Notes under the pieces: generated by a model
Databases searched by the model: none
What the model saw: the letters and a program-made list of their open reading frames with translations, nothing else
What the model was told of the DNA's origin: nothing
Source: an uncultured Paracoccaceae bacterium
GTDB lineage: Bacteria > Pseudomonadota > Alphaproteobacteria > Rhodobacterales > Rhodobacteraceae
Assembly (NCBI GenBank): GCA_913061275.1
Contig: CAJXSR010000012.1
Location: 1-64,000 of the forward strand
DNA length: 64,000 nt
Reading direction: 5' to 3'
Position numbers and translations under genes: made by a program
Shown: piece after piece, positions 28,190 through 61,448 of the stretch
Numbering within the stretch: the stretch's first letter is position 1
Layout: every line of letters begins with the position of its first letter

Positions 28190-30223
28190 CTACATATCCT
28201 TACAAATCCGCAACGCATCATAAATAGCTGCGTGAATATTTCGGCACGATACAGCATCACCGATTGAATATAACTGAAACCCACCATCACTGTCAGGTTG
28301 TGGTTTGTTCCCCGTTAAACAGTCATAATCCGTCACACCGTTATTGACTGACAGATGGCGCAATGCCTCATAAACGTCATTCATCGGCAATGTTCCGTGT
28401 TCGACCACTAAATGATCTACAAGGCGTTCAATGTCAGGGCCATGAAATTCATTAGTAAAGGTTATACGCAAACGATTGCCGTCTTTTTCAACCGCACTAA
28501 TGCGGTGATCGGGTGTAATAGTGACACCATTTTTATAGAAATGCTCCATGAATATAGGAAAATTTACCGTCCCCATCTCTATTGCCGCAGCGCGATCAGG
28601 GGTGGCTAATTCTACCGACACATCAGGTATGCGGCTTAGAAAGTCTGCGCAGCTGGTGCCTTGAAACTGGCCGATGTCATCATAGACCAAAACGGATCCA
28701 CTTATATCTTGCCCTGCCAAAATATCCCAAGTGCTGATCGCATGCTCACCACCAACCATATATTCCGTATCTGGTAGTCCGCCTGTTGCAATGAAAACCA
28801 CATCAGGTGTTTCATCTTGCACCATATCTTCGTCCGCAAACGTGTTCCAGCGAATGTCCACACCCAAACGTTCCACTTCGGCACGCAGCCAATCCGCAAT
28901 CCCAATCAGATCTTTGCGCCAAGCAGCACGTGCAGCTAGGTTAATTTGCCCGCCCAATTCCCCCGTTGCTTCAAATAAAACCACGTCATGGCCACGCATG
29001 GCACAAACACGTGCGGCCTCTAACCCCGCAGGGCCACCACCCACAATTACGACTTTCTTCTTACGGCCTTTGGATATCTCAATTTCATGAGGCATCGTCG
29101 CTTCTCGCCCTGTGGCAGCATTGTGCACACATAAAGTACCGCCACCCGTATATATACGGTCCAAACAATATCCGGCCCCAACACAGGGCCTAATACTGTC
29201 TTCTTTACCCGCAATCAGTTTATTCACAATATTCGGGTCGGCAATATGGGCGCGTACCATCCCCACACAATCTAAAGCACCACTTTCAATGGCGTGACGC
29301 GCAGATGATAAATCGGCAATTTTGCAAGCATGAAACAAAGGCACTTTAATCTGATCGCGTACTTTTGCGATTTCTGCCACCCAAGGCGCCAGAGGAAACC
29401 GCATTCCGGGAATGTGGTAACTTAAAGCATGATCTGTGTCGATCTTACCAAAATTGGCTGTCATATAGTCGATCAACCCAGTTTCTGCAATAATTCGCGC
29501 CGCCTCTGTTCCTTCTGCCAAATCAATACCGCCAGTAAGGTTTTCACTTAAACCTTGCCGAATGCCGATTATAAAATCTGGGCCAACCGCGTCGCGCATA
29601 TCCGTTAAAATTTCTAACGTGAAACGCAAACGGTTTTCGAATGAGCCGCCATATTCATCATTACGCAGGTTAGTTAATGGTGATAAAAACTGTTCGGGTA
29701 AATGCCCGTGTTGCAATATTTCACAACCGTCCAGCCCGCCTTCTTTGCACCGTAGTGCTGCATCAACATAGGCCCGCCGCACGCGTGAAATATCAGCCCT
29801 ATCCATCTCTTTGGGAAAAGCCCTGTGTGCAGGTTCACGCACACGGCTGGGGGCAATTACAGGCAGCCAGTCAGCCATATCCCAAACCGTACGCCGCCCC
29901 ATATGAGACAGCTGGCAGATAAGACCACAGTCATATTTGTGAATGCGATCTGAAAATTCCCGAAAATACGGAATAATATCATCCGTCACCATATTAAGCT
30001 GCCCAAAAACCGATGGACTGTCTGCCGCCACACTGGCCGAGCCGCCAAACATCGTCATCCCGATACCGCCCTTGGCTTTGGCTTCATGGTACAACTGATA
30101 GCGTTCTTTGGGCATGCCCTGCTCTGAATATGCAGGTTCATGCGGGGTGGATAAAATACGGTTTTTCAACGTCAAATGCTTCAACTGAAAAGGTTGCAGT
30201 AATATATCCCGCTTCGGTGCCAT
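28190..30223 (-). CDS. NADH:flavin oxidoreductase, demethylase type
   Basis: A 677-residue two-part enzyme: an N-terminal Old Yellow Enzyme TIM barrel (FMN; LKNRILSTPHEPAYSE, ILQHGHLPEQFLSP, EYGGSFENRLRF) with the [4Fe-4S] cysteine cluster in RPCVGAGYCLDRIYTGGGTLC (split here by family pattern), then a C-terminal FAD/NAD domain (VVIVGGGPAGLEAARVCAMRG). Trimethylamine dehydrogenase, N-methylproline demethylase and dimethylglycine demethylase DgcA share this layout. GGAGA precedes the start. It is convergent with the desaturase gene, 4 bp away. Substrate likely an N-methylated compound (inference). Confidence 0.84.
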   Translation of the reverse strand: MAPKRDILLQPFQLKHLTLKNRILSTPHEPAYSEQGMPKERYQLYHEAKAKGGIGMTMFGGSASVAADSPSVFGQLNMVTDDIIPYFREFSDRIHKYDCGLICQLSHMGRRTVWDMADWLPVIAPSRVREPAHRAFPKEMDRADISRVRRAYVDAALRCKEGGLDGCEILQHGHLPEQFLSPLTNLRNDEYGGSFENRLRFTLEILTDMRDAVGPDFIIGIRQGLSENLTGGIDLAEGTEAARIIAETGLIDYMTANFGKIDTDHALSYHIPGMRFPLAPWVAEIAKVRDQIKVPLFHACKIADLSSARHAIESGALDCVGMVRAHIADPNIVNKLIAGKEDSIRPCVGAGYCLDRIYTGGGTLCVHNAATGREATMPHEIEISKGRKKKVVIVGGGPAGLEAARVCAMRGHDVVLFEATGELGGQINLAARAAWRKDLIGIADWLRAEVERLGVDIRWNTFADEDMVQDETPDVVFIATGGLPDTEYMVGGEHAISTWDILAGQDISGSVLVYDDIGQFQGTSCADFLSRIPDVSVELATPDRAAAIEMGTVNFPIFMEHFYKNGVTITPDHRISAVEKDGNRLRITFTNEFHGPDIERLVDHLVVEHGTLPMNDVYEALRHLSVNNGVTDYDCLTGNKPQPDSDGGFQLYSIGDAVSCRNIHAAIYDALRICKDM

Positions 30224-30356
30224 GCCAATCTCCTGATGAAACACGTCTGATAAGGGAAACCGTAGGATAATTGAAAAATAAATCTAGTGGGAAAACCATA
30301 TATCCACAGCTTTTTTCAGCGTCCAGTTTTGGGCTAATAGGGGGGATATAACCGAA

Positions 30357-30448: not shown

Positions 30449-31156
30449 CTACCCGCGAAAGCCTTGGGCTACGACAAACTTCTCGGAACTGTCAGCGCGG
30501 CTGCTTGGTGGTTTTACATTGGCCACTTTGGTGAATTTTTCCTTCAGCAACTTTTGCAAATCACCCTCGGCACCCCCTGCCAGAACCTTGGCAACAAACG
30601 TACCGCCTTCTTCCAGCACATCAAACGCAAAATACGCGGCAGCTTCACACAAGTTTATAATGCGCAAGTGATCGGTTTGCTTATGCCCCGAACTTGATGC
30701 CGCCATATCAGACATCACAACATCAGCTTTGCCGCCAAGCCAGTCTTTGACCAGATCATCAGCCCCTTCATCCAAAAAGTCCAATACACGAATATCAGAG
30801 CCTGGAATAGGATCAACTTCTTGCAGATCAATACCCAGAATTGTGCCTATATCTTTGCTTACACGTGTTCCCAAAGCATTGATGCGCGGCACAGCCACCT
30901 GTATCCAACCCCCTGGTGCGCACCCCAAGTCAACCACACGTGCGCCTGGAACCAAAAATCTGAATTTATCGTCTAATTCCAATATCTTATAGGCCGCACG
31001 ACCACGGTAGCCGTCTTTATTGGCCCGTTGTACATACGGATCATTCAACTGGCGATCCAACCACAATGTAGATGATAACTTACGGCCCTTAGCCGTTTTT
31101 ACACGGGTTCGAAGATCACGTAAACCGCGCCCAGAACTGCCTTTTTCTTTTGCCAT
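30449..31156 (-). CDS. rlmE: 23S rRNA 2'-O-methyltransferase RlmE
   Basis: A 235-residue FtsJ-family protein that methylates U2552 of 23S rRNA. The SAM motif is [15 protein letters not shown]; the KDKE tetrad is represented by [16 protein letters not shown], and FVAKVL. A basic N-terminal extension precedes the core, as is common in alphaproteobacteria. It follows ppx by about 100 bp on the same strand. Confidence 0.94.
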
Positions 31157-31264
31157 AGATCAATCGCCTTAGTAACAAATGTACAGTATCAAACGATGTT
31201 AATACCAAAATTCCACATATTTTGCACTTGTTTACTCTGCTTCACAGGCCAAAGGCAATCGGCA

Positions 31265-32371
31265 TTAATTCAACCGTTTTGCGGCCATCTGGGAATACAA
31301 AATCCCTTCGCGCAAGCCGCGATCGGCAACCGTCAATTTGTCTGTAGGCCAAACCCGTAACACGCCTTGCAAAATTGCGGCACCAGACATAATCAGCTCA
31401 CATCTGTCATTCCCGATACAGGCCGCTTTACGTCGGCCTGATAAGCCTAGGCGCAAATATTCTTGGGTCACTTGCTCTACCTCAGTTGCCGTCATTGAAA
31501 CGCCATCAATTTGTGTACGCTCATAGCGCTTCAAGCCTTTGAAAGATGCGGCCACCGTTGTTACTGTGCCAGAGGTACCTACTATCTGAAAGGCATTTCG
31601 CGCAGCCGCATTTGAAAAATCTACAGGCCGTCCAAAATCCGCAACCGCGTCTTCAAATGCGCATGACATTAAAGCAAACCTAGCGCCATCCTCATCCACA
31701 TCCCGAAATTGATCATTCAAAGTCGCCACCCCTAAGGGGACAGAAATCCAATCCACAATTTGCGCACCATCTACCGAAGGTTTGTTGGTTTTTTCACAAG
31801 CAACTTTTAAATTACGCAATGCATCTGATCGCTGCTCTGGTGCCACGCCGTTTAGCTCAATCCAAGCCAGTTCAGTTGAGCCGCCGCCAATATCCAAGAC
31901 CAAAAGCTGTTCAGTTTCTGGGGCTACATGCGGGGCGCAGCTAACACAGGCAAGACGCGCCTCTTCGGCAGGGCGTATAATTTCCAACTGCAACCCGGTT
32001 CTGTCTTTTACCTGTTTGATAAAAGTTTTACCGTTACGTGCCCGCCTGCACGCTTCGGTCGCAACAAAACGCGTGTTAACAACGCCGTGTTCGTTCAATT
32101 TTTTCTTGCAAATATGCAGTGCTTGAATGGTTCGGTTTATCGCGGCTCGCGATAATGTTCCGTACTCTTCCAGCCCTTTACCCAAATGCACAGGCTTAGA
32201 AAACGCATCAATAACTTCAAATTCAGTTCCCACGGAACGCGCAATTAACATACGGCATGAATTTGTACCTAAGTCCAAGGCCGCAAATAATTCATCTTGT
32301 TTTGGTTTAGTTTTTCCATTTCGATGCTTCAAAGCAGAAAAAGCTGGATTTTTTGCGCTTTCCACTGGCAT
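31265..32371 (-). CDS. Exopolyphosphatase/pppGpp phosphohydrolase (Ppx/GppA)
   Basis: A 368-residue ASKHA-fold phosphatase. ALDLGTNSCRMLIAR is phosphate loop 1, VLDIGGGSTELAW loop 2, and IVGTSGTVTTVA the adenosine-type loop. It is of the short form (no C-terminal HD domain), so exopolyphosphatase and pppGpp hydrolase activities cannot be told apart. Upstream rlmE-ppx order is common in alphaproteobacteria. Confidence 0.88.
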   Translation of the reverse strand: MPVESAKNPAFSALKHRNGKTKPKQDELFAALDLGTNSCRMLIARSVGTEFEVIDAFSKPVHLGKGLEEYGTLSRAAINRTIQALHICKKKLNEHGVVNTRFVATEACRRARNGKTFIKQVKDRTGLQLEIIRPAEEARLACVSCAPHVAPETEQLLVLDIGGGSTELAWIELNGVAPEQRSDALRNLKVACEKTNKPSVDGAQIVDWISVPLGVATLNDQFRDVDEDGARFALMSCAFEDAVADFGRPVDFSNAAARNAFQIVGTSGTVTTVAASFKGLKRYERTQIDGVSMTATEVEQVTQEYLRLGLSGRRKAACIGNDRCELIMSGAAILQGVLRVWPTDKLTVADRGLREGILYSQMAAKRLN

Positions 32372-32543: not shown

Positions 32544-32843
32544 ATGCCAGATGTAACTATAGTCTATTGGCGCGACATCCCAGCACAAGTAATTGTGGGC
32601 AAAGGGCGTCGCGGTGCAAAAATTCAACTGCCCGAACGATTCGAGCAGGCGATTGATCGTTGCGCAATGAAAATCGACGCTAAAGATTCAGACGCATATC
32701 TTGCCGAATGGCGCAAAGCTGCCCCCTATGCCGTTGAAGGTGAACAAGGTGCGATTGCCAAAGATGAAGCAGACAAATTGGATGCTACTTACGACCAAGA
32801 TAAAATCAAACAGCTGATCGCTAATGACGGCTGGGAAAAGTGA
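32544..32843 (+). CDS. Small 'virulence factor' family protein (function unknown)
   Basis: A 99-residue cytoplasmic protein beginning MPDVTIVYWRDIPAQVIVG, with the basic segment GKGRRGAKIQLPERFEQAIDRCAM. It matches the family annotated in Rhodobacterales as virulence factor, a name with no biochemical basis. It leads an operon with methylene-THF reductase and methyl-THF:corrinoid methyltransferase, so it probably serves corrinoid/folate methyl transfer (inference). The start has AAAGG 8 nt upstream. No catalytic motif is visible. Confidence 0.75.
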   Translation: MPDVTIVYWRDIPAQVIVGKGRRGAKIQLPERFEQAIDRCAMKIDAKDSDAYLAEWRKAAPYAVEGEQGAIAKDEADKLDATYDQDKIKQLIANDGWEK

Positions 32844-32878
32844 CAGGGGTAATTCCCTTTTATGAAAGGTTAAAGCAA

Positions 32879-33802
32879 ATGGCTTTGCTTAAATTCGCGC
32901 GTAAAAATGATGATGTAACGGATAGCCCACATCTGGAAGCTTTCCTGCAAGGCTACTCTATAGAGGTTATGCCACGCACCGCAGAAAAAATTGAAGATTT
33001 CCGCGACCTTTTACCCAAAGGCACACGGGTTTATGTAGCCCACATCGAAGGCACACCGATTGATGATATGGTTGCAACCGCAAAACGTATCAAAAGCGAA
33101 GGCTATGATGTGATGCCACACTTCCCTGCGCGTATCATTAAAGACGAAGCTACTTTGGCTGACTGGATTGCACGCTACCAAGGCGAAGCGGATGTAAAAC
33201 AGGCCCTATTGCTTGCAGGTGGCGTTGAAAAACCGCACGGTGATTACCATTGTTCTATGCAATTACTGGAAACCGGCCTGTTTGATAAGGCTGGCTTCAC
33301 CAATCTGCATGTTGCAGGCCACCCAGAAGTTAATAAAGACATTGATCCTGATGGCGGGCGCACCAATGTAAACGAAGCTTTGTCTTGGAAACAAGAGTTT
33401 TCCAAACGCACGGATGCCAAAATGGCATTGGCAACACAGTTCTGTTTTGAAAGCGGCCCTGTGATCGAATGGGCAGACAATCTGATAGCACAAGGCATAG
33501 ATATTCCAGTGCACATCGGTATTGCTGGCCCTGCCAAATTGCAAACCATGATTAAATTCGCCATCGCTTGCGGCGTTGGCCCGTCTTTGAAGGTTCTACA
33601 AAAACGCGCCAAGGACGTAACCAAGCTGTTACTGCCATTTGAGCCAAATTCAATATTGTCTGAACTGGCTGACCATAAAGCCGCACATCCAGAGTTTAAC
33701 ATTGAAAAAGTACATTTTTTCCCGCTTGGTGGCATCAAAACCAACGCCACATGGGCCATGACTAACGGTGGCAGCGCAGCTGTTCCCGCCTCACAATCCT
33801 AA
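32879..33802 (+). CDS. Methylenetetrahydrofolate reductase family protein
   Basis: A 307-residue TIM-barrel flavoprotein of the MetF superfamily. It shows EVMPRTAEKIEDF at the start, the LLLAGGVEKPHGDYHCSMQLLE flavin region, HVAGHPEVNKD, and ATQFCFESGPVIEWAD, all as in MTHFR. In this operon it may run in the oxidative direction, turning methyl-THF into methylene-THF (inference). The ATG at 32879 is chosen for the AAAGG 9 nt upstream; a GTG at 32840 overlapping the previous gene is an alternative. Confidence 0.85.
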   Translation: MALLKFARKNDDVTDSPHLEAFLQGYSIEVMPRTAEKIEDFRDLLPKGTRVYVAHIEGTPIDDMVATAKRIKSEGYDVMPHFPARIIKDEATLADWIARYQGEADVKQALLLAGGVEKPHGDYHCSMQLLETGLFDKAGFTNLHVAGHPEVNKDIDPDGGRTNVNEALSWKQEFSKRTDAKMALATQFCFESGPVIEWADNLIAQGIDIPVHIGIAGPAKLQTMIKFAIACGVGPSLKVLQKRAKDVTKLLLPFEPNSILSELADHKAAHPEFNIEKVHFFPLGGIKTNATWAMTNGGSAAVPASQS

Positions 33803-33814
33803 AGGATACGCATA

Positions 33815-34873
33815 ATGACACGAACAATCGTTGAAAGTAAAACCAGAACCGCCATTATCGGTTTTGACCAACCGTTTTGCGTAATTGGTGAACGGATCAA
33901 CCCAACAGGTCGTAAAAAACTGGCAGCAGAGCTGGAAGCAGGCGATTTTTCTACAGTTGAAGCAGACGCGTTGGCACAGGTTGCCGCAGGTGCCACCATG
34001 CTCGATATTAACGCAGGCGTGGTTTACAATTCTAACCCAAACCCAAATGAAACAGAGCCGCCATTGATGACCAAAGTGCTGAACATGGTACAGGCTTTGG
34101 TCGATATTCCTTTGTGTATCGACAGCTCTGTTCCCGCTGCTTTGGAAGCGGGCCTTGCTGCCTGTGAAGGCCGCCCCCTACTGAATTCAGTAACAGGCGA
34201 AGAAGATCGCCTAGAAGCTATTCTGCCGTTGGTTAAAAAATACAATGTTCCCGTTGTGGCTATTTCCAATGATGACACTGGCATTTCAGAAGACCCAGAA
34301 GTACGCTTTTTGGTCGCTAAAAAAATCGTTGAACGTGCCGCAGATTTCGGCATTCCTGCCCATGACATCGTGGTTGACCCGTTGGTTATGCCAATTGGTG
34401 CGATGGGAACGGCAGGCTTGCAAGTATTTGAACTGGTTCGTAAATTGCGTAATGAGCTGGGCGTGAACACGACATGTGGTGCCTCAAACATCTCATTTGG
34501 TTTGCCAAACCGTCACGGTATCAATAATGCGTTTTTGCCAATGGCAATGGCCGCAGGCATGACATCGGCTATTATGAACCCGATCCAACTGCCTGTTACC
34601 GCAAAAGCAATGCTTGAAAAGCTAGAGGCACTTGCCGCCGCTGGCATCATTGTTCCAGGCGACATAGACCCAGAACTTTTGGCAAGCCTAACAGGTATGG
34701 GATCTACTAAAGCACGCGCTGGCTCTGAAATGATGGCAATCCGTGCGGCAAACTTCCTGACAAACAATGACCCACATGGTTCTGCTTGGATTAAAGCAAA
34801 CCGCCCACCTGTCGCTGAAGGTGCGGAAACAGGTGCGCGCAAACGCAGAGCGGGTGGTCGGCGTCGCGGCTAA
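33815..34873 (+). CDS. Methyltetrahydrofolate:corrinoid methyltransferase, MtgA/AcsE-like
   Basis: A 352-residue pterin-binding TIM-barrel protein. CVIGERINPTGRKKLAAELE and AAGATMLDINAGV are the dihydropteroate-synthase-like pterin motifs; the lids NVPVVAISNDDTG, DPLVMPIGAM and TTCGASNISFGLPNR are those of corrinoid:THF methyltransferases. It should move methyl groups between a corrinoid protein and THF. Beyond the barrel there is an unusual C-terminal tail, about GARKRRAGGRRRG. It follows the MTHFR gene after 12 bp. Confidence 0.87.
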   Translation: MTRTIVESKTRTAIIGFDQPFCVIGERINPTGRKKLAAELEAGDFSTVEADALAQVAAGATMLDINAGVVYNSNPNPNETEPPLMTKVLNMVQALVDIPLCIDSSVPAALEAGLAACEGRPLLNSVTGEEDRLEAILPLVKKYNVPVVAISNDDTGISEDPEVRFLVAKKIVERAADFGIPAHDIVVDPLVMPIGAMGTAGLQVFELVRKLRNELGVNTTCGASNISFGLPNRHGINNAFLPMAMAAGMTSAIMNPIQLPVTAKAMLEKLEALAAAGIIVPGDIDPELLASLTGMGSTKARAGSEMMAIRAANFLTNNDPHGSAWIKANRPPVAEGAETGARKRRAGGRRRG

Positions 34874-34919
34874 ACAAATCGTGTTACATTTTGTAAACAA
34901 AGCTATCTTTCCAATAAGC

Positions 34920-34952
34920 GTTGTGTCCTTCTAGGATTATGAAGGACACAAC
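34920..34952 (+). promoter_or_regulatory. Perfect 12-bp inverted repeat enclosing a start codon
   Basis: Arms 34920-34931 (GTTGTGTCCTTC) and 34941-34952 (GAAGGACACAAC) are exact complements; the 9-nt loop TAGGATTAT holds the AGGA site and the first two bases of the ATG at 34939. As RNA this hides or presents the start of the next gene; as DNA it is a large operator. It may also end the upstream one-carbon transcript. Confidence 0.6.
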
Positions 34953-35619
34953 AAATCAATCCACCACCCGTTCGGCTGTGTTGCGCACAACTTTACGGAT
35001 TTTATTCATAGTTCTAGTCGTACTTATTCTGCACAAAATGATGTCATGGACATTAAGTGTGGCAGAATTAAACCAAAACGGCCCCTTAATGGTTGGTTTC
35101 GTCTTCACCATACTAGCGACATATATCATTCTGATTTCGATCCCGTTTGTACCTGGTATCGAAATTGCCTTATCATTGATGATGCTGCGCGGCCCGGAAG
35201 TGGTAATCTGGGTCTACTTAGCGACAGTCATAGGGCTATTCTTATCTTTTTTGGCAGGACAATATCTATCCTATAAATATTTGCACAAATTATTTCATGA
35301 TCTTCAAATGAAGCGCACCTGCCAACTGCTTGAAAAGCTTCATCCTTTATCAAGAAAAGAGCGCCTGAATATAATAAAGGATAAACTTCCGATTATATTG
35401 CGCCCCTTTATTGTAGAGGGCCGTTATGTTGCCGTTGCCGCTATTTTAAACATACCCGGAAACGCACTGATAGGTGGCGGTGGCGGTATATTATTAATCG
35501 CGGGCCTATCCCGAATATTTTCCACCCTTGGTATGTTACTGACACTTATTATTGCAGTGGCCCCCGTTCCGATTGCAATTCTTGTTTTCGATATTGACCC
35601 AATGGCGTTTTTACGCTGA
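34939..35619 (+). CDS. Integral membrane protein, VTT/DedA-like
   Basis: A 226-residue polytopic protein. A first helix spans about residues 18-35; the later FVPGIEIALSLMMLRGPEVVIWVYLATVIGL and IPGNALIGGGGGILLIAGLSR segments resemble the re-entrant-loop half-sites of the VTT (SNARE-associated/DedA) superfamily, which scrambles or moves lipids. Assignment is by pattern only. The ATG lies in the loop of a perfect 12-bp hairpin with only 2 nt from AGGA, so an internal GTG at 34978 is an alternative start. Confidence 0.6.
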   Translation: MKDTTNQSTTRSAVLRTTLRILFIVLVVLILHKMMSWTLSVAELNQNGPLMVGFVFTILATYIILISIPFVPGIEIALSLMMLRGPEVVIWVYLATVIGLFLSFLAGQYLSYKYLHKLFHDLQMKRTCQLLEKLHPLSRKERLNIIKDKLPIILRPFIVEGRYVAVAAILNIPGNALIGGGGGILLIAGLSRIFSTLGMLLTLIIAVAPVPIAILVFDIDPMAFLR

Positions 35620-35632
35620 CTAAATTGAAACT

Positions 35633-35647
35633 AGAACACAGTGTTCT
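35633..35647. promoter_or_regulatory. Palindrome AGAACAC-A-GTGTTCT
   Basis: A perfect 7-bp inverted repeat around a single base, 65 bp upstream of the VOC-family gene and 14 bp after the membrane-protein stop. There is no T-run, so an operator is more likely than a terminator. Confidence 0.45.
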
Positions 35648-35712
35648 TGTGCTACTCGCTGACATTTCGCCCAAGGCATGCAAATATCAATAACACTTAA
35701 CTGGAACGAAAT

Positions 35713-36204
35713 ATGACCCAACCTTACACCATACCCACTGGAACCTCGATCGGGCATGTACACCTGAAAGTCGCAAATATTGAACGCGCATTAGAATTTT
35801 ACCAAGGTGTACTGGGCTTTGAAATCATTCACCAAAGGGGTGATGAAGCCGTCTTTATCTCTGCTGGTGGCTATCACCACCATATCGCGTTAAATACGTG
35901 GCACAGCAAAGATAAACCACCTGCCCCAAAAAACACTGCAGGGCTTTTCCACATCGCAATTCTATATCCAACGCGGTTTGATCTGTCTGTTGCTTTGAAC
36001 CGTGTGAGAAATGCAGGCATACCGATAGACGGTTCTTCAGATCACGGCGTATCCGAAGCGCTTTATATCAACCACCCAGATGGCAATGGTGTAGAGCTTT
36101 ACGTTGACCGTCCTAAATCAGATTGGCCGCGTGATAGTTCAGGAAGTATTTCGATGATAACCAGCCCTTTGGATGTTGATGCGCTGTTGAAGCTATCGCA
36201 ATAA
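35713..36204 (+). CDS. VOC-family protein (glyoxalase/extradiol dioxygenase type)
   Basis: A 163-residue protein with two beta-alpha-beta-beta-beta modules. Metal ligands are likely His in SIGHVHLKVANIERALEFYQ, His in GLFHIAIL, and Glu in GNGVELYVDRP, as in CatE-type catechol 2,3-dioxygenases and glyoxalases. The HHHIALNTW segment is typical of CatE. Substrate unknown. The stop is followed directly by a terminator hairpin. Confidence 0.82.
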   Translation: MTQPYTIPTGTSIGHVHLKVANIERALEFYQGVLGFEIIHQRGDEAVFISAGGYHHHIALNTWHSKDKPPAPKNTAGLFHIAILYPTRFDLSVALNRVRNAGIPIDGSSDHGVSEALYINHPDGNGVELYVDRPKSDWPRDSSGSISMITSPLDVDALLKLSQ

Positions 36205-36230
36205 AAAAGGGGTGCCGCTATGCACCCCTT
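36203..36230 (-). terminator. Bidirectional hairpin; strong terminator for the P460 gene
   Basis: AAGGGGTGC (36207-36215) pairs with GCACCCCTT (36222-36230) over a 6-nt loop. On the minus strand the stem is followed by a T-run (36208-36203), giving a rho-independent terminator for the cytochrome gene; on the plus strand it lies right after the VOC gene. Confidence 0.85.
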
Positions 36231-36268
36231 AGTATAATAAGATCAGGATTGGGATATCTAAATCTTAA

Positions 36269-36805
36269 TTATCTCGTAAACAGGTAATCGTCGCCATCAG
36301 CGCTTGAATGACACGCGATACAACCTTTTTCCTTACCCTTCGCAACACGGCCAGCTAGCTGCATTCCTTTTGGGTTTTTATCTAATGAACCGTCTGGCAA
36401 ATACTTTGCCCAGAACCAGTTTGCATTGTCTGCATCATAGCCATCTTCACGTTGGAACATCACTGTGATTGCACCCAGATGCTTAGCAGGATCATTTAAA
36501 ACTTGTTCAGCTTCAACACCTTCTGGCCCGTAGTTACGTTTTACTACCAAAGAACCAGTATGGCCGTTTAGGGTAGCGGTTGTGTAAAACGTCTCAAGCA
36601 TTTTTCCGTGCGGGTCTACACCTTCATAGGGAAACGTGCGAATGGCATTGTCGCCTGCAAGCTTCTCAGAGATCATTAAATCCCATAAAAGTGCCGCGTA
36701 ATCCGTTTCCATTTTTGTGCCGAATGGTTTGTCTTGGGCTGTCGCCTGAACACCTGCTACTGCGATAGCGGCCACTGTCAGTAATCCTAAATATTTTGCG
36801 CGCAT
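36269..36805 (-). CDS. Cytochrome P460-family protein
   Basis: A 178-residue periplasmic protein: signal peptide (about 1-23, ending VQATAQ), a beta-rich domain and a C-terminal CIACH haem site in KGCIACHSSADGDDYLF, the layout of cytochrome P460 and cytochrome c'-beta. P460 proteins oxidise hydroxylamine or bind NO; activity depends on a Lys-haem crosslink and an active-site Glu that cannot be judged here without alignment. It is divergent from a c-type cytochrome gene across 185 bp, a likely electron partner. Confidence 0.8.
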   Translation of the reverse strand: MRAKYLGLLTVAAIAVAGVQATAQDKPFGTKMETDYAALLWDLMISEKLAGDNAIRTFPYEGVDPHGKMLETFYTTATLNGHTGSLVVKRNYGPEGVEAEQVLNDPAKHLGAITVMFQREDGYDADNANWFWAKYLPDGSLDKNPKGMQLAGRVAKGKEKGCIACHSSADGDDYLFTR

Positions 36806-36990
36806 TATATTCTCCCTTTGGTATTATACCGTAATTTTTCATTAACTTATGAATGCACAGTAACGCTCACACAGGAAGAAGGGTAATCACGTTTCGGTAA
36901 AAATCTTGTGATCTATTGGTTAACTTTGATGATTAGACAAATAAATCATTTAAGTAAAAGATAGGCGAAACCAACGCAGGGAATATACCA

Positions 36991-37719
36991 ATGAAAATTA
37001 TCGCAACCGCAATGACAGTCTCAACGCTCATATTTGGGCAAGCAGCCCTATCGCAAGATGTGGATGCAGGTAAAAAAGTCTTTAAGAAATGCAAAGCTTG
37101 TCACAAAATCGGTGAAGGTGCCAAAAACAGCACAGGCCCTGTATTAACCAATGTTGTCGGACGTACTGCGGGCACATATGAAGGTTACAAATATTCCAAA
37201 ACCCTTAAGGCTGCAAAAGAGGCTGGTTTGGTGTGGGACACTGATAACCTAGCATCATACATAGAAAACCCAAAAAATTACATGAAAGCCCTGCTAAATA
37301 ATAAAAAAGCCAAGCCAAAAATGTCATTCAAACTTAAAGATGCCCAAAAACGTGCAGATGTAGTTGCCTATGTCGCTTCATTTTCACAACCGATGGAAGC
37401 AGAAATGCCTGCAACGCAAACTGTAGTAAAAAGCGATGTCATGGCACCAACGGGTGGGATTTGTGTGCAAAACGCCTCTAGGTCAGCTTATTTCTTTGTC
37501 GCAGAAGGTGAAAATGGCGTGCGTGTTACCAAGCAACTTGAACCAAATGAAGTGCTTTGCACACCAGAAATTCCCAATGGCACAAAGGGATCTGTCAGCG
37601 TTTTTGAAACAGAAGATCATTTTGAAGGTTGTACGCGCCTTGTGAAAGCAAACACAGTTGAACAGATGATGCGGTATTCAGAATTTGACCGCTGCTTGTG
37701 GACTTCTAACGCTGGATAA
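36991..37719 (+). CDS. c-type cytochrome with a Cys-containing C-terminal extension
   Basis: A 242-residue exported protein. After a signal peptide (about 1-22) comes a class I cytochrome c domain with CKACH and the M ligand in KPKMSFK (about residues 25-132). The remaining 100 residues form an extra domain with four Cys (GGICVQN, VLCTPE, EGCTRL, DRCLW), possibly two disulfides. It is divergent from the P460-family gene. The extension is not recognised. Confidence 0.83.
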   Translation: MKIIATAMTVSTLIFGQAALSQDVDAGKKVFKKCKACHKIGEGAKNSTGPVLTNVVGRTAGTYEGYKYSKTLKAAKEAGLVWDTDNLASYIENPKNYMKALLNNKKAKPKMSFKLKDAQKRADVVAYVASFSQPMEAEMPATQTVVKSDVMAPTGGICVQNASRSAYFFVAEGENGVRVTKQLEPNEVLCTPEIPNGTKGSVSVFETEDHFEGCTRLVKANTVEQMMRYSEFDRCLWTSNAG

Positions 37720-37844
37720 CACAAAGGTTGGTTTTACTTCGTAATTGGCGGTTAATGGTGCAATAACGGCGTAGTTTTGCCTTTTCTATCCCATAGAATA
37801 CTGCATATTGCTGATAAATACAGTTCAAGCAATGAAGTAGAAAC

Positions 37845-39890
37845 ATGACCAATTCTGACGATCCGCTGGTAATTTTCACCCCCTCTGGCAAACGCGGTAA
37901 TTTTCCCGTTGGCACACCTGTCCTGACCGCCGCCCGTAAACTGGGTGTTGATCTGGATAGTGTTTGCGGTGGGCGTGGCATATGCTCAAAGTGTCAGGTG
38001 CAGCCGTCTTACGGTGAGTTCGCCAAGCACGGTGTCACTGTGGCCGATGATGCACTTTCAGTCTGGAATGCGGTTGAAGAGCGCTACAAATCTAAGCGCC
38101 ACATGCTAGACGGGCGTCGATTAGGTTGTCAGGCCAAAGTACAAGGCAATGTTGTGATTGATGTGCCACCCGAAAGTCAGGTACACAAGCAAGTTGTCCG
38201 CAAAAGGGCCGAGGCCCGCGACATCACCATGAACCCATCCACAAAACTGTTTTATGTCGAAGTGCAAGAACCCGATATGCACAACCCGTCAGGTGATCTG
38301 GAACGGCTGGTTACTGCCCTACGCCACGACTGGGATTTGCCAAAACTAGAGGTCGATTTTTCGGTTCTGCCTATCTTGCAACCCGCCTTGCGCAAAGGGG
38401 GGTGGAAAGTTACCTGTGCCGTTCATCTGGGCGATCACACAGTCAGCCCGCGCATCGTACATATTTGGCCGGGCTATTATGACGGGGCTATATACGGCAT
38501 GGCTGTTGATCTGGGATCAACCACCATTGCGGCCCACCTATGTGATCTGCGTTCGGGTGAAGTGGTCGCAAGCAACGGCATTATGAACCCGCAAATCCGC
38601 TTTGGCGAAGATTTGATGAGCCGTGTCAGTTATTCGATGATGAATGAGGGCGGTGCGCAAGAAATGACCAATGCCGTGCGTGACGGCATGAATGCACTGT
38701 TTATTCAAATCGCATCCGAGGCTGAAATTGACCCCACCATGATTATGGATGCGGTGTTTGTCTGTAACCCTGTAATGCACCATCTGTTTTTAGGCATTGA
38801 TCCGTTTGAGTTGGGACAGGCCCCGTTTGCGCTGGCCACATCAGATGCAATTTCCACCCGTTCGCAAAGCTTGAACCTAAACATTCACCCTGCCGCACGT
38901 GTCTACCTGCTTCCCTGTATCGCGGGCCATGTAGGGGCAGATGCCGCCGCAGTAGCCCTGTCTGAAGCCCCTGATAAATCCGAAGACTTGGTTTTACTGG
39001 TTGATGTTGGCACCAACGCGGAAATTATTTTGGGCTACAAAGAAAAAGTATTGGCCTGTTCATCCCCCACTGGCCCCGCTTTTGAAGGCGCGCAAATATC
39101 CTCTGGCCAACGTGCAGCCCCCGGTGCCATTGAACACGTTGAAATTGACCCCATCACCAAAGAACCCCGTTTCCTTGTGATCGGGTCTGACATTTGGTCA
39201 GATCAAGAAGGCTTTGCCCAAAGCATTCTGTCATCTGGGATCACGGGCATATGCGGCTCTGGCATCATTGAAATGGTCGCAGAAATGCGCATGGCTGGTA
39301 TTGTTGACGGGCCAGGCCTGATCGGTGGGCCAGATCAAACAGGTACGACGCGTTGCTTCCTGGATGGGCGCACCCATTCCTATATGGTTTATGATGGCAG
39401 TGCTGAAGGTGCCCCCAAAATCACCGTGACCAACCGCGACATTCGCGAAATCCAGATGGCAAAGGCAGCGCTTTATTCAGGTGCGCGTCTGTTAATGGAT
39501 AAGTTTGAGGTCGATACAGTTGACCGCATCGTACTTGCAGGCGCGTTTGGCGCCCATATCAGCCCCAAACACGCAATGGTTCTGGGCATGATCCCTGACT
39601 GCATACTGGAGAAAGTGACCTCTGCGGGCAACGCTGCAGGAACAGGTGCGCGTATTGCATTGCTTAACACCGATGCACGGGCCGAAATTGAAGAAACCGT
39701 GCGCAACATCCACAAAATCGAAACCGCGATAGAGCCGCGCTTCCAAGAACATTTCGTTAACGCATCCGCCATACCCAACAGCGCCGAAAAATTCCCAATA
39801 CTGGAAACCATCGTGACCCTACCAGATGTGAACTTCAACACTGGCGGCGATAAAGAAGGTGGCGGCAGAAGGCGCAGACGGCGGGGTTGA
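37845..39890 (+). CDS. RACo-like corrinoid activator (ASKHA/DUF4445, 2Fe-2S)
   Basis: A 681-residue protein. The N-terminal ferredoxin domain holds Cys41, Cys47, Cys50 and Cys95 (CGGRGICSKC, RRLGCQA). A linker and middle domain are followed by an ASKHA ATPase core (GMAVDLGSTTIAAHL; VLLVDVGTNAEIIL; IVLAGAFGAHI). RACo proteins reduce Co(II) corrinoid to Co(I) at the cost of ATP, reviving methyltransferase systems. It ends in an arginine tract (GGGRRRRRRG). Together with the MttB- and MtgA-like proteins it marks a corrinoid methyl-transfer system. Confidence 0.88.
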   Translation: MTNSDDPLVIFTPSGKRGNFPVGTPVLTAARKLGVDLDSVCGGRGICSKCQVQPSYGEFAKHGVTVADDALSVWNAVEERYKSKRHMLDGRRLGCQAKVQGNVVIDVPPESQVHKQVVRKRAEARDITMNPSTKLFYVEVQEPDMHNPSGDLERLVTALRHDWDLPKLEVDFSVLPILQPALRKGGWKVTCAVHLGDHTVSPRIVHIWPGYYDGAIYGMAVDLGSTTIAAHLCDLRSGEVVASNGIMNPQIRFGEDLMSRVSYSMMNEGGAQEMTNAVRDGMNALFIQIASEAEIDPTMIMDAVFVCNPVMHHLFLGIDPFELGQAPFALATSDAISTRSQSLNLNIHPAARVYLLPCIAGHVGADAAAVALSEAPDKSEDLVLLVDVGTNAEIILGYKEKVLACSSPTGPAFEGAQISSGQRAAPGAIEHVEIDPITKEPRFLVIGSDIWSDQEGFAQSILSSGITGICGSGIIEMVAEMRMAGIVDGPGLIGGPDQTGTTRCFLDGRTHSYMVYDGSAEGAPKITVTNRDIREIQMAKAALYSGARLLMDKFEVDTVDRIVLAGAFGAHISPKHAMVLGMIPDCILEKVTSAGNAAGTGARIALLNTDARAEIEETVRNIHKIETAIEPRFQEHFVNASAIPNSAEKFPILETIVTLPDVNFNTGGDKEGGGRRRRRRG

Positions 39891-57542: not shown

Positions 57543-58229
57543 TTATTCCTCTTGTGCCAGTCGCGGCGCATCTTTTGATGTTAAATCTGCCAACACAGTT
57601 TCGCCGCCCACCATGGTCTGCCCCAATGCAACCAACGGGTTCACACCCTCTGGCAGATATACATCCAAACGTGAGCCAAAACGGATCAATCCAAACCGCT
57701 CACCCGTGCGCAGGCTTTGGTCTTTTTCAACAAACCCCAATATCCGCCGCGCAACAAGCCCTGCAATTTGCACCACAACCAACTGCCGCCCATCCGCCAT
57801 TTCTATGGCAAGTGAGCTGCGTTCATTGTCTGAACTGGCTTTATCCAAGGAAGCGTTGAAAAACTTACCGGGCCGATAGGCCAATGCGGTGATTTTCCCC
57901 GCAATAGGCGCGCGGTTAATGTGGCAGTTAAAGACGCTCATAAAAACGCTAACACGCAACAAGGGTTCTGACCCTACGCCCAATTCCTCTGGCGGGGTGG
58001 CCATTTCGATTAGGGATATAACCCCGTCCGCAGGGCTGACAATCAACCCTTCACGAGTTGGAACAGACCTTATAGGATCACGAAAAAAGTAATAACACCA
58101 GATGGTTAATATAACACCAACCCAGCCCAGAACATCCGATATTAAAAATAAAACAAGGGTAATCGCGGCAAATGCACCAACGAATTTCAAACCTTCTTTG
58201 TGCATTGGCTTCACGAAGGTGTTTAACAT
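57543..58229 (-). CDS. psd: Phosphatidylserine decarboxylase, Psd-A type
   Basis: A 228-residue proenzyme. Two membrane segments lie near residues 12-50, [22 protein letters not shown] is the conserved core, HINRAPIAG follows, and self-cleavage should occur in [11 protein letters not shown] to form the pyruvoyl group. Its size matches the short archaeal/alphaproteobacterial type. The start at 58229 is chosen because upstream residues lack family similarity; a distal TTG is possible. Confidence 0.92.
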
Positions 58230-58362
58230 ACTTACTGACACTGGAATTTCTACCCTTATTATAAAAGCGACATATATGACGCAAATGGACAAGATGATCT
58301 TCCATATCTAAGTCCAAATCAAAGCATGATAGAACTTAATTGGATGACAACCCTTATTTCGC

Positions 58363-58375
58363 GCACCATTGGTGC
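58363..58375. promoter_or_regulatory. Small hairpin in the leader of the MttB-family gene
   Basis: GCACC-ATT-GGTGC (58363-58375) lies about 82 bp before the start codon, followed by a GC-rich stretch. No riboswitch was recognised. Confidence 0.25.
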
Positions 58376-58456
58376 TGATCGCGGCCGTGCGGCGCGCGGT
58401 TCCCCCTGTTTTTGCTGAAAAACCAACAATCTTCAAGCAAAATCAAGGAAATCTAA

Positions 58457-59998
58457 ATGTCTGGAACCAAAACCCGCAGATCAGGTGGGCGTGCCGCGCG
58501 CCAAGCATTGCGTGCAGCACCTCTAACCGACGATATTCGCCCAATTCGTGCGGGCATGGAGGGCGGTACTTATAAACCCCTTTCAGAACGCGATGTGCAA
58601 CGCATTCATGAAACCGCACTCAAGGCGTTAGAAACGATCGGCTTGGCCGATGCACCCCAAACTGGCATAGATGTGCTGGTTAAAGCAGGTGCTATCCTTG
58701 GCGACGATGGTCGCCTAAGGTTTCCCCGTTCTGTTGTCGAAGATACTTTGGCTATTGCGGCAAAGAAGGTCACACTTTTTAGCCGTGATGGTAAGAACGA
58801 TCTAGAACTTTATGGTAACCGCGTACACTTTGGCACGGCCGGTGCGGCTGTGCACATCGTTGACGTAGAAAACAATGAATACCGCGAATGTGTCGTACAA
58901 GATTTGCATAATGCGGCCAAGATCGTGGATAAATTAGACAATGTACATTTCTTGCAACGCCCAATGGTTTGTCGTGATATTCCAGATAATTACGAGATGG
59001 ACTTAAACACGATTTATGCATCTTGTTCAGGGACAACCAAACACATTGGCACCAGCTTTACTGACCCGTCTTATATGAAAGGCGCGTTTGAGATGATTTA
59101 CGAAATCGCGGGTGGTGAAGACAAATATCGCGAACGCCCTTTCATCTCTAACTCTAATTGTTTTGTCGTCCCACCGATGAAATTCGCAACTGAGTCTTGC
59201 GAAACGATGGAACTGTGCATTCGCGGCGGCATGCCCGTACTTCTGTTATCCGCAGGCATGGCTGGGGCCACAACCCCTTCCACAATAGCAGGAGCTATTG
59301 CGCAAGCTTGCGCCGAATGCCTAGCAGGCCTTGTTTATGTAAATGCGATTAAACCCAGGCACCCTGCCATATTCGGCACTTGGCCGTTCGGTTTGGACTT
59401 ACGCACAGGTGCCATGACCGTTGGATCAGGCGAACAGGCATTATTATCCGCAGGGTGCGCCCAAATGCACAAATTCTACGGTTTACCAGGGGGGGCCGCT
59501 GGTGGTGCATCCGACTCTAAAATGCCCGACATGCAAGCAGGTTGGGAACAGATGTGCTCGAATGTCATGACAGGCCTATCAGGTTTGAACATGGTTTATG
59601 AAGCCGCTGGCATGCATGCGTCACTTTTAGGGTTTTGCCTTGAATCCCTGATCCTGTCAGATGATCTGATAGGTCAAGCGCAAAGGTGTGTACGCGGTAT
59701 TGAAGTTACAGATGAAACGCTGGCACTAGATCAGATCGCAGACGTCTGTTTGAACGGCCCAGGTCACTATTTGGGCACAGATCAAACACTTAGCCGTATG
59801 CAGGCAGATAACGTATACCCAACACTTGGTAACAGAATGTCCCCTAAAGAATGGGCAGAGTACGACAAACCAGATTTGATTGAAAACGCTATCAAATTGA
59901 AAAATGAGATATTGGCAGAACGTTCAAACGCAAGGCTTGATCCCGAATTGGATCAAGCTATTCGTAAAAATTTCAACATTCACTTGAAACGGCAATAA
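58457..59998 (+). CDS. MttB-family trimethylamine methyltransferase-like protein
   Basis: A 513-residue member of the MttB superfamily without an in-frame amber codon, so it lacks pyrrolysine, like MtgB (glycine betaine) and related enzymes. It would move a methyl group from a quaternary or tertiary amine to a corrinoid protein. Core segments: FGTAGAAVHIVDVENNEYRE, SAGMAGATTPSTIAGAIAQA, and FYGLPGGAAGGASDSKMPD. The N-terminus is arginine-rich (TRRSGGRAARQALRAA). AAGGAAA precedes the start. No adjacent corrinoid-protein gene; the RACo- and MtgA-like genes are about 20 kb away. Substrate not known. Confidence 0.88.
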   Translation: MSGTKTRRSGGRAARQALRAAPLTDDIRPIRAGMEGGTYKPLSERDVQRIHETALKALETIGLADAPQTGIDVLVKAGAILGDDGRLRFPRSVVEDTLAIAAKKVTLFSRDGKNDLELYGNRVHFGTAGAAVHIVDVENNEYRECVVQDLHNAAKIVDKLDNVHFLQRPMVCRDIPDNYEMDLNTIYASCSGTTKHIGTSFTDPSYMKGAFEMIYEIAGGEDKYRERPFISNSNCFVVPPMKFATESCETMELCIRGGMPVLLLSAGMAGATTPSTIAGAIAQACAECLAGLVYVNAIKPRHPAIFGTWPFGLDLRTGAMTVGSGEQALLSAGCAQMHKFYGLPGGAAGGASDSKMPDMQAGWEQMCSNVMTGLSGLNMVYEAAGMHASLLGFCLESLILSDDLIGQAQRCVRGIEVTDETLALDQIADVCLNGPGHYLGTDQTLSRMQADNVYPTLGNRMSPKEWAEYDKPDLIENAIKLKNEILAERSNARLDPELDQAIRKNFNIHLKRQ

Positions 59999-60342: not shown

Positions 60343-61377
60343 TTACCCGTAACGGTATGGACGTCCGGCTTTAACCATATCAGCGTTGTATTGCTTGAAG
60401 ATTTTTACAACCTTGGCTTTGGTTTCTGACTCGGCTGCAATTTCATCCCAGAAAGTAACAGCAGCGTCTTCAACAGTTTTCCATTCTGCATCTGGAATTG
60501 ATGTCAATTTCATCTTCGGCCCGTTTACGCGCAATGAAGCTTCACCACCCCAGTACCACCACTGACGGTAGTAATGTGATTGGTCACAACAAACCCGGAA
60601 CAGCGTTTGTAAATCTTCTGGCAGTTCATTCCAGCGATCCATATTGGCAAAGAATGACCCTGCCCATGCGCCCGAAATATTGTTGGTCAGGAAGTAGTTT
60701 GTTACATCTGCCCAGCCAACTGTGTAGTCCTCGGTGATACCTGACCACGCAATGCCGTCCAGCTCACCTGTTTGCATAGCAACTTCGATGTCTTCCCAAG
60801 GAAGTGTGACGGGCACAACACCGAACTGTTCAAGGAAACGACCCGCAGTTGGGAAGGTAAACACGCGTTTGCCTTTTAGGTCTGCAAGGTTGTGGATAGG
60901 GTCTTTGGTGGCGAAGTGACATGGATCCCAAGCACCTGCACTGATGTGTTTTACACCGACTTTGGAATACTCTTCGTCCCAAATTTCATTCAAACCGTAT
61001 TGGTTAAACAATACAGGCACATCAAGGCTATAGCGTGAACCGAATGGGAAATACCCACCAAAAACAGTAACTTCTGTTGGGGACGCCATGCTGTCATCAT
61101 CGGATTGTACCGCGTCGATTGTGCCTTTTTGCATCGCACGGAACAATTCACCCGTAGGAACCAGCTGATCGCCGTAGAACAGTTCAATTTGCATACGGTC
61201 GCCAGCTATTTGGTTGAACATGTTGATCGCCGGTGTGACGACATGTTCGGCCAGTGACGCACCTGCATATGTCTGCATACGCCATTTGATCGTAGATTGT
61301 GCAAGTGCGGGGGCAGCTAAGCTTGCGCCTACGGCACCTGCACCGGCGGTGGTTAAAAACTTACGTCTAGTTGTCAT
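60343..61377 (-). CDS. TRAP transporter solute-binding protein DctP
   Basis: A 344-residue periplasmic binding protein. It begins MTTRRKFLTTAGAGAVGASL, a twin-arginine signal (TRRKFL), cleaved near APALAQ. QSDDDSMASPTEVTVFGG and GKRVFTFPTAGRFLEQFG are typical of the TakP-like subfamily, which binds 2-oxo acids and related organic acids. Ligand unknown. It is the last gene of dctQ-dctM-dctP, preceded by hairpins that may stabilise its mRNA. A terminator follows. Confidence 0.9.
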   Translation of the reverse strand: MTTRRKFLTTAGAGAVGASLAAPALAQSTIKWRMQTYAGASLAEHVVTPAINMFNQIAGDRMQIELFYGDQLVPTGELFRAMQKGTIDAVQSDDDSMASPTEVTVFGGYFPFGSRYSLDVPVLFNQYGLNEIWDEEYSKVGVKHISAGAWDPCHFATKDPIHNLADLKGKRVFTFPTAGRFLEQFGVVPVTLPWEDIEVAMQTGELDGIAWSGITEDYTVGWADVTNYFLTNNISGAWAGSFFANMDRWNELPEDLQTLFRVCCDQSHYYRQWWYWGGEASLRVNGPKMKLTSIPDAEWKTVEDAAVTFWDEIAAESETKAKVVKIFKQYNADMVKAGRPYRYG

Positions 61378-61404
61378 TTTCAGTCTCCTGGTTGGTTATT
61401 AAAT

Positions 61405-61442
61405 GCCCTGAACGGGCGGCGAATTTATTGCTCCTGACGGAG
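61405..61442 (-). promoter_or_regulatory. Intercistronic hairpins between dctM and dctP
   Basis: GCCC-TGAAC-GGGC (61405-61417) and CTCC-TGAC-GGAG (61431-61442) lie in the 71-bp gap before dctP, whose AGGAGA site follows. They may protect the dctP part of the transcript, which is needed in excess. Confidence 0.4.
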
Positions 61443-61448
61443 TTCTTA

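What the first reader, a model, noticed from the sequence alone, without database searches (positions are those of the whole stretch)
32544..39890. Corrinoid methyl-transfer module in an aerobic-looking bacterium, split over two loci
Seen: an MtgA/AcsE-like methyl-THF:corrinoid methyltransferase, a MetF-like reductase, a RACo-like activator with four [2Fe-2S] cysteines, and, 20 kb away (58457-59998), an MttB-family protein without an amber codon. Known: this set works in anaerobes for amine demethylation. Inference: here it feeds methyl groups from a quaternary amine into the folate pool under aerobic conditions. No corrinoid protein is in the window.
Basis: partly seen in the sequence, partly recalled or inferred. 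Interest (0 to 1): 0.7.

Follow-up and report, generated by a model that had tools for sequence, protein, structure and literature searches.

The report
Marine bacterium's shared B12 methyl-transfer hub
This marine bacterium appears to use one vitamin-B12 carrier protein both to make methionine and to strip methyl groups from small nutrients in air; the system was recently described in relatives, but the methyl-stripping enzyme in this window looks built for a different, still unknown substrate.

Summary
The genes are real and where stated. They belong to a published kind of system: the split methionine synthase of Phaeobacter (PMC5764234) and its Ruegeria extension MtgBCDE + RamA + MetF2, which also demethylates glycine betaine aerobically (PMC12478193). 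The missing corrinoid protein exists: the genome's only B12-binding_2 protein (MtgC) sits on contig C5 between MtgE and DUF1638. No MetH reactivation domain was found, so MtgD, RamA and MtgC probably make methionine too. MetF2 resembles S6MTHFR, reported to oxidise methyl-THF.

The pairing with the MttB protein needs correcting. It is one of 11 MttB loci in the genome and lies outside the MtgB side of my tree. Three residues proposed (from docking) to hold glycine betaine (N199, R309, H345) are F, G, E in 30 of 30 rows of its clade but N, R, H in 38 of 38 MtgB-side rows. It keeps Gly110/Tyr364 of pyrrolysine MttB, with Ala at the pyrrolysine position. By position it is probably the orthologue of Ruegeria SPO2134 ('MtgB2'). 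I infer a substrate without a carboxylate, identity unknown.

A 99-aa PF13769 protein directly precedes metF2 in 75 of 80 loci, a possible undescribed partner.

The parts
32544..32843 (+). 99-aa PF13769 protein (Pfam name 'Virulence_fact', uninformative here), first gene of the unit, its stop overlapping the metF2 ORF by 4 bases
   Evidence: PF13769 105.8 bits, cut-off 25; directly upstream of MetF2 in 75 of 80 mtgD loci; 37 invariant columns among 50 rows
32840..33802 (+). MetF2, S6MTHFR-like methylenetetrahydrofolate reductase family protein (first ATG at 32879)
   Evidence: PDB 7xg9 E 7.2e-49; 89 of 275 aligned residues identical to it, 62 of 288 to the genome's canonical MetF on C30; upstream of mtgD in 78 of 80 loci, within 100 bp in 71
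33815..34873 (+). MtgD, methyl-THF:corrinoid methyltransferase (pterin-binding module)
   Evidence: PF00809 96 bits; NF005719 398 bits over its cut-off of 259
37845..39890 (+). RamA/RACo-like ATP-dependent corrinoid reductive activator with a [2Fe-2S] ferredoxin domain
   Evidence: PF14574 280 bits, PF17651 164, PF17650 106, Fer2 24; cysteines 41, 47, 50, 95; PDB 3zyy E 5.9e-87
58457..59998 (+). Non-pyrrolysine MttB-family protein of a clade outside the MtgB side; probable orthologue of Ruegeria SPO2134 by position
   Evidence: PF06253 360.9 bits; tree; residues; position
59507..59606 (+). Coding stretch that matches the Rfam PYLIS_3 (mttB) model, beginning at the GCA codon of Ala351 where pyrrolysine mttB has UAG; read here as codon-level similarity, not as an RNA element
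   Evidence: RF02510 51.5 bits, gathering score 38; codon position

Best explanation
The window holds part of the MtgBCDE/RamA/MetF2 corrinoid system of marine Rhodobacteraceae. MtgD moves methyl groups between tetrahydrofolate and a single shared corrinoid protein, MtgC (contig C5). For methionine, methyl-THF methylates MtgC and MtgE passes the methyl to homocysteine; this genome shows no MetH reactivation domain. For catabolism, MttB-family proteins methylate Co(I)-MtgC from methylated amines, MtgD runs in reverse, and MetF2 oxidises methyl-THF to methylene-THF. RamA, probably with DUF1638, re-reduces Co(II), which an aerobe must do often. Shown here: gene content, order, families, motifs, single MtgC, 11 MttB loci. 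Inferred from relatives: the reactions and directions. The window MttB plugs into the same hub but is probably not the glycine betaine enzyme.
For: One PF02607 protein in the genome, on C5 with MtgE upstream and DUF1638 downstream. PF02965 (MetH reactivation) 0 matches while 7 of 14 control genomes ring. MtgC motif DIHDIG, SAL and GG; MtgE GGCCG. Same parts needed for methionine in Phaeobacter (PMC5764234 passages) and mtgC, mtgD needed for methionine and glycine betaine growth in Ruegeria (PMC12478193). MetF2-MtgD order kept in 78 of 80 loci; MetF2's best solved relative is 7xg9, which I take to be S6MTHFR, reported to oxidise methyl-THF (PMC12585457 whole text). In 150 family genomes, 5 of the 6 whose only PF02607 match is MetH-like have no MttB, against 3 of the other 141 with a match. 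No Rieske protein reaches the GbcA cut-off (6 of 6 below: best 167 of 670 bits).
Against: No biochemistry or genetics exists for this organism. A PF01717 (MetE-type) protein of 397 aa is present on C2 (106 bits), so methionine may not depend wholly on the corrinoid route. MtgC stays below the NCBIfam cut-offs of all its matches (MtgC models 185 of 370 and 165 of 310 bits), as expected if it is a separate lineage. MetF2 has GG where S6MTHFR and canonical MetF have GD, so the direction is not proven by sequence. 3 of 150 genomes have MttB but no PF02607 match. The co-occurrence test ignores kinship.
Confidence: 0.85

Rival explanations
1. The window MttB is an ordinary glycine betaine methyltransferase (a second MtgB), as the published name MtgB2 for SPO2134 implies, and the substituted residues do not matter.
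For: SPO2134, its probable positional orthologue, was raised in the proteome of R. pomeroyi grown on N-osmolytes (PMC12478193). The Y/N/R/H set comes from docking, not from a ligand-bound structure (PMC6855144 passages). PDB 9yce and 2qne (MtgB) are its best solved relatives at 198 bits, ahead of pyrrolysine MttB at 174.
Against: N199, R309 and H345 are F, G and E in 30 of 30 clade rows but kept in 38 of 38 MtgB-side rows; Y94 is G in 30 of 30 (Y94 itself is kept in only 16 of the 38). Tree split with SH-aLRT 99. The own C46 MttB next to a dimethylglycine-dehydrogenase-like protein scores 336-340 bits to MtgB structures.
Confidence: 0.2
2. The set only makes methionine; the MttB protein is unconnected or works in a different process, and demethylation plays no role in this organism.
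For: mtgE, mtgC and DUF1638 form one cluster and no MttB lies beside metF2-mtgD. The window MttB stands 18.6 kb away.
Against: MetF2 is a second, oxidation-type relative beside a canonical MetF elsewhere. Two own MttB genes lie next to GCV_T-domain proteins, one fused to a DAO oxidoreductase. MttB presence follows MtgC-type proteins. In Ruegeria mtgC and mtgD are needed for growth on glycine betaine even with methionine added (PMC12478193).
Confidence: 0.1
3. The window MttB takes its substrate from the TRAP transporter encoded next to it (60343-63370), so the substrate is the TRAP solute.
For: DctP, DctM and DctQ genes lie immediately downstream on the other strand.
Against: In 20 neighbourhoods of its orthologues no DctP or DctQ relative and only one remote DctM (23% identity) was found, while cysS stays near in 13 of 20.
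Confidence: 0.07

Closest known systems
MtgBCDE with RamA, DUF1638 and MetF2 of Ruegeria pomeroyi DSS-3 (PMC12478193; abstract, Results and Discussion read, Methods passages)
   Same: Separate MtgC, MtgD, MtgE, RamA, DUF1638; metF2 beside mtgD; no MetH; several PF06253 proteins sharing one corrinoid protein
   Different: mtgE stands with mtgC and DUF1638 here, apart in R. pomeroyi; 11 MttB loci (9 intact) here against 'up to seven' in the paper
Three-part methionine synthase of Phaeobacter inhibens with RamA-like and DUF1638 reactivation proteins (PMC5764234; passages)
   Same: All five parts are present in this genome
   Different: No radical SAM gene lies between mtgE and mtgC here, unlike the c13350-c13370 order in the passages
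Quaternary amine hub of Eubacterium limosum: MtpB, MtcB, MtyB with one MtqC, MtqA and RamQ, 42 MttB superfamily members (PMC8604678; passages)
   Same: Many MttB proteins, one corrinoid carrier, one THF methyltransferase and one activase in scattered loci
   Different: Anaerobic acetogen; MetF2 and methionine synthesis are the aerobe's outlets here
MtgB of Desulfitobacterium hafniense (PDB 2qne; 9yce is a near-identical chain named glycine betaine methyltransferase)
   Same: Same family and fold by sequence (E 2.4e-57 and 2.6e-57 to the window MttB)
   Different: Window clade has G/F/G/E for Y94/N199/R309/H345
Pyrrolysine MttB of methanogens (PDB 7xcl; PMC9842639 passages)
   Same: Gly110 and Tyr364 kept in 30 of 30 clade rows; PYLIS_3 coding stretch matches
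   Different: Ala or Ile at position 334 instead of pyrrolysine; no amber codon
S6MTHFR of Sphingobium lignivorans SYK-6 (PMC12585457, whole text; that 7xg9 is this protein is my inference)
   Same: Best solved relative of MetF2
   Different: 32% identity; GG for GD at one site; works with LigM there

Membership tests
Split methionine synthase (Phaeobacter type) | Pterin-binding, B12-binding and homocysteine-methyltransferase modules as separate proteins | tested here: met
   PF00809 at 33815-34873; PF02607+PF02310 and PF02574 proteins on C5
Split methionine synthase (Phaeobacter type) | RamA-like and DUF1638 reactivation proteins in place of the MetH reactivation domain | tested here: met
   RamA-like at 37845-39890, PF07796 on C5, PF02965 0 matches
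Split methionine synthase (Phaeobacter type) | Mutants are methionine auxotrophs | not testable with these tools
   Needs genetics; shown in P. inhibens and R. pomeroyi
MtgBCDE glycine betaine system | MtgC, MtgD, MtgE, metF2 next to mtgD, and at least one PF06253 protein | tested here: met
MtgBCDE glycine betaine system | Growth on glycine betaine dependent on mtgC and mtgD | not testable with these tools
   Shown only in R. pomeroyi
MtgB, glycine betaine methyltransferase (window MttB) | PF06253 family | tested here: met
   360.9 bits, cut-off 25
MtgB, glycine betaine methyltransferase (window MttB) | Y94, N199, R309, H345 proposed for glycine betaine | tested here: not met
   G, F, G, E in 30 of 30 clade rows; the residues rest on docking
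MtgB, glycine betaine methyltransferase (window MttB) | Groups with D. hafniense MtgB | tested here: not met
   Split with SH-aLRT 99; one MtgB and one MttB reference, long branches, no bootstrap
Pyrrolysine MttB (window MttB) | In-frame amber codon for pyrrolysine | tested here: not met
   GCA (Ala351) at the site, no in-frame TAG
Pyrrolysine MttB (window MttB) | NCBIfam TIGR02369 cut-off | tested here: not met
   354 of 525 bits, though above the 229-269 bits of the six own MtgB-side proteins
S6MTHFR-type oxidative MetF (MetF2) | Sequence relation to 7xg9 | tested here: met
   E 7.2e-49 against 0.043 for the next solved MTHFR
S6MTHFR-type oxidative MetF (MetF2) | Oxidation of 5-methyl-THF in vitro | not testable with these tools
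   Needs enzymology
RACo/AcsV corrinoid activator | Fer2, linker, middle and ASKHA domains with four cluster cysteines | tested here: met
RACo/AcsV corrinoid activator | NCBIfam AcsV cut-off | tested here: not met
   389 of 800 bits; so a relative, not AcsV itself

The most novel reading that the evidence does not exclude
The window MttB and its orthologues (at 61% identity or more in 83 of 150 Rhodobacteraceae-family genomes) are a separate kind of aerobic corrinoid methyltransferase: a pyrrolysine-free relative of trimethylamine MttB that has a glutamate where MtgB has its carboxylate-binding histidine, uses a methyl donor without a carboxylate (for example choline, another simple quaternary ammonium ion or a sulfonium), and works through the shared MtgC. 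If it is SPO2134, the name MtgB2 is misleading. The PF13769 protein would be a further, undescribed partner of MetF2-MtgD.
Probability: 0.4. Interest if true: 0.6.

Novelty: new member of a known kind. Interest (0 to 1): 0.4.

Why it matters
The hub itself is known since 2018-2025, so the genome is a further member. What remains open is which MttB protein handles which methylated compound in the ocean. In the passages I read, genetics in R. pomeroyi covers mtgC and mtgD, and a term search of the paper for 'mtgB mutant' found none. The residue pattern splits the MttB proteins of one genome into betaine-like (N/R/H kept) and not betaine-like (F/G/E), and gives a direct test of whether 'MtgB2' transcripts should be counted as glycine betaine demethylation.

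Tried and rejected
TRAP transporter as substrate clue: not conserved in 20 orthologue neighbourhoods. PYLIS_3 match as an RNA element: rejected, because the model has few pairs, several are non-standard in the printed alignment, the matched codons mirror the protein motif, and PMC3639795 (passages) reports no common structure for this region of mttB; it is used only as a sign of codon-level likeness. Oxygenase route: six PF00848 proteins, none near the GbcA cut-off. Structure of the PF13769 protein: model of modest confidence (mean pLDDT 72), no Foldseek match with E <= 0.001, no solved relative, no NCBIfam family. First gene-neighbour clustering gave antisense ORFs in GC-rich genomes and was replaced by tblastn and a coding-score version. 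Counts of MttB per genome are capped at nine scored candidates, so I do not rank genomes by them. Dropped rows: L131 fell out of the MttB tree by the script's length filter (58 of 59 loci kept); MetF2 alignment has 76 of the 78 loci with a hit; Rfam scans took 20 of 29 orthologue loci and 19 of 30 loci.
Full report
What is in the window. At 32544-34873 three genes follow each other on the + strand: a 99-aa PF13769 protein, MetF2 and MtgD, with a 4-base overlap and a 12-base gap. A RACo/RamA-like activator is at 37845-39890. Between them lie a membrane protein without a Pfam hit, a glyoxalase-family protein, a cytochrome P460-like protein and a cytochrome c, which I do not count as part of the system. 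The MttB-family protein is at 58457-59998. The nearest MtgD relatives in a scan of named genomes are Amylibacter MAGs at 93 and 92% identity, then other Rhodobacteraceae; I take the organism to be an Amylibacter-like marine alphaproteobacterium. That it lives aerobically is inferred from this kinship.

The rest of the set. The genome (3.39 Mb, 56 contigs, 99.99% complete) has one PF02607 protein, on contig C5. Around it are MtgE (336 aa, PF02574), MtgC itself (233 aa, PF02607 + PF02310) and a DUF1638 protein (214 aa, PF07796), in that order. MtgC has DIHDIG, SAL and GG at spacing typical of B12-binding domains, MtgE has GGCCG (the meaning of these motifs is recalled). PF02965, the MetH reactivation domain, has no match in the genome although 7 of 14 control genomes ring. 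A second PF02574 protein is on C16, a canonical MetF on C30 and a MetE-type protein on C2.

What it is. Price and colleagues showed by mutant fitness that these separate parts make methionine in Phaeobacter inhibens, with RamA-like and DUF1638 proteins for reactivation (PMC5764234, passages). Mausz and colleagues showed that in Ruegeria pomeroyi mtgC and mtgD are needed both for methionine and for growth on glycine betaine, and that MetF2 was the most strongly raised protein on N-osmolytes (PMC12478193, sections read).

MetF2. Its best solved relative is 7xg9, at E 7.2e-49 against 0.043 for the next MTHFR. I take this to be S6MTHFR of Sphingobium, which is reported to oxidise 5-methyl-THF (PMC12585457, whole short text; the cited full paper is not held). 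MetF2 shares 89 of 275 aligned residues with it and 62 of 288 with the genome's own MetF. Against an easy transfer of function, MetF2 has GG where both others have GD. MetF2 lies upstream of mtgD in 78 of 80 loci, within 100 bp in 71 and with 0.6-0.7 kb between in 7; a RamA relative is inside 20 of the 80 loci.

PF13769. The small gene is directly upstream of MetF2 in 75 of 80 loci. Of the other five, two contigs begin inside MetF2, one has MetF2 without it, one has it without MetF2, and one has neither. Alignment of 50 gives 37 invariant columns. The accession is in no paper of the held library (which searched three terms), and Price 2018 does not hold it.

MttB in the genome. PF06253 has 12 matches at 11 loci. 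Nine are full length; the C11 gene is broken by a frame change; the C13 gene stops early beside an ORF that looks to me like a transposase (by eye). In 150 genomes of the family 142 have an MttB match and 147 a PF02607 match. Of the 6 genomes whose only PF02607 match is MetH-like, 5 have no MttB; of the other 141 with a match, 3 have none (Fisher p 6e-7; kinship is not corrected for). Three genomes have MttB but no PF02607 match.

The window MttB is a different branch. In a tree of 71 rows the window protein, C26 (88.7% identical), C34, C13 and 28 orthologues stand apart, with SH-aLRT 99, from 38 rows that include D. hafniense-type MtgB and the own C4, C43, C46, C47, C1 and C19. The tree has long branches, one reference each for MtgB and pyrrolysine MttB, a short search and no bootstrap, so I rely on it only for this split. 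Orthologues at E <= 1e-100 occur in 88 of 150 genomes, 83 of them at 61% identity or more.

Residues. PMC6855144 (passages) proposes from docking that Y94, N199, R309 and H345 hold glycine betaine. N, R and H are kept in 38 of 38 MtgB-side rows; the window clade has F, G and E in 30 of 30. Y94 is kept in 16 of 38 MtgB-side rows and is G in 30 of 30 clade rows. C34 has H, S and Q at the three sites. For pyrrolysine MttB, Gly110 and Tyr364 are named as activating residues (PMC9842639 passages); both are present in 30 of 30 clade rows, with Ala (18) or Ile (12) at position 334. TIGR02369 scores the window protein 354 bits, C26 360 and C34 368, but the six own MtgB-side proteins 229-269; all are under the cut-off of 525. 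By pairwise search the window protein is nevertheless nearer to MtgB (198 bits) than to pyrrolysine MttB (174).

PYLIS_3. Rfam's mttB pyrrolysine-insertion model matches 59507-59606 at 51.5 bits and begins on the GCA codon that replaces UAG. It also matches C26 and C34 among eight further own loci, and 17 of 20 orthologue loci, but 0 of 19 loci of the other MttB kinds, nor the own L014 and L015. I read this as likeness of coding sequence around the former or future pyrrolysine site, not as an RNA element.

Link to R. pomeroyi. In six Ruegeria genomes and one other family genome, a window-type MttB (76-78% identity in all seven) lies 25.8-27.4 kb from the single PF02607 gene. Each of these genomes has a further MttB of the same score class elsewhere; the one on the mtgC contig was taken. 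In R. sediminis the C4-type MttB, the window-type MttB and mtgC follow at about 29 and 28 kb, and DUF1638 is second after mtgC, as the R. pomeroyi tags SPO2108, SPO2134, SPO2160 and SPO2162 would have it. So the window MttB is probably the orthologue of SPO2134, named MtgB2 and raised on N-osmolytes. The DSS-3 sequence itself could not be fetched, so this rests on position.

Conclusion. The module is an ordinary member of a recently published kind. The unsettled part is the window MttB: it very likely feeds the same MtgC, but its pocket argues against glycine betaine. I put about 0.4 on a substrate without a carboxylate.

Noticed in passing
57543-59998; L020 9251-11406: The divergent psd-mttB pair has a second copy at the end of contig C26 (78% DNA identity over 2158 bases, MttB 88.7% identical); the psd copy runs to the contig end.
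   Followed up: partly
L021 8961-10501 (contig C11): An MttB gene broken by a frame change, beside an aminotransferase and a zinc dehydrogenase gene.
   Followed up: partly
L022 8780-10611 (contig C13): An MttB gene that stops early next to an ORF that looks like a transposase (the latter by eye).
   Followed up: partly
L015 4385-8607; L016 295-2959: Two other MttB genes sit next to GCV_T-domain proteins, one of them a DAO-GCV_T fusion of the dimethylglycine dehydrogenase type; good candidates for the betaine enzymes.
   Followed up: partly
28190-30244: Old-yellow-enzyme family protein with FMN and Rossmann domains, 684 aa; best NCBIfam match below cut-off.
   Followed up: no
36269-37719: Cytochrome P460-like gene divergent from a cytochrome c gene, found near mtgD in only 1 and 2 of 80 loci.
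   Followed up: no
30449-32371: RlmE/FtsJ-like and PPX-like genes keep their place beside metF2-mtgD: relatives in 68 and 76 of 80 loci (names by recall).
   Followed up: no
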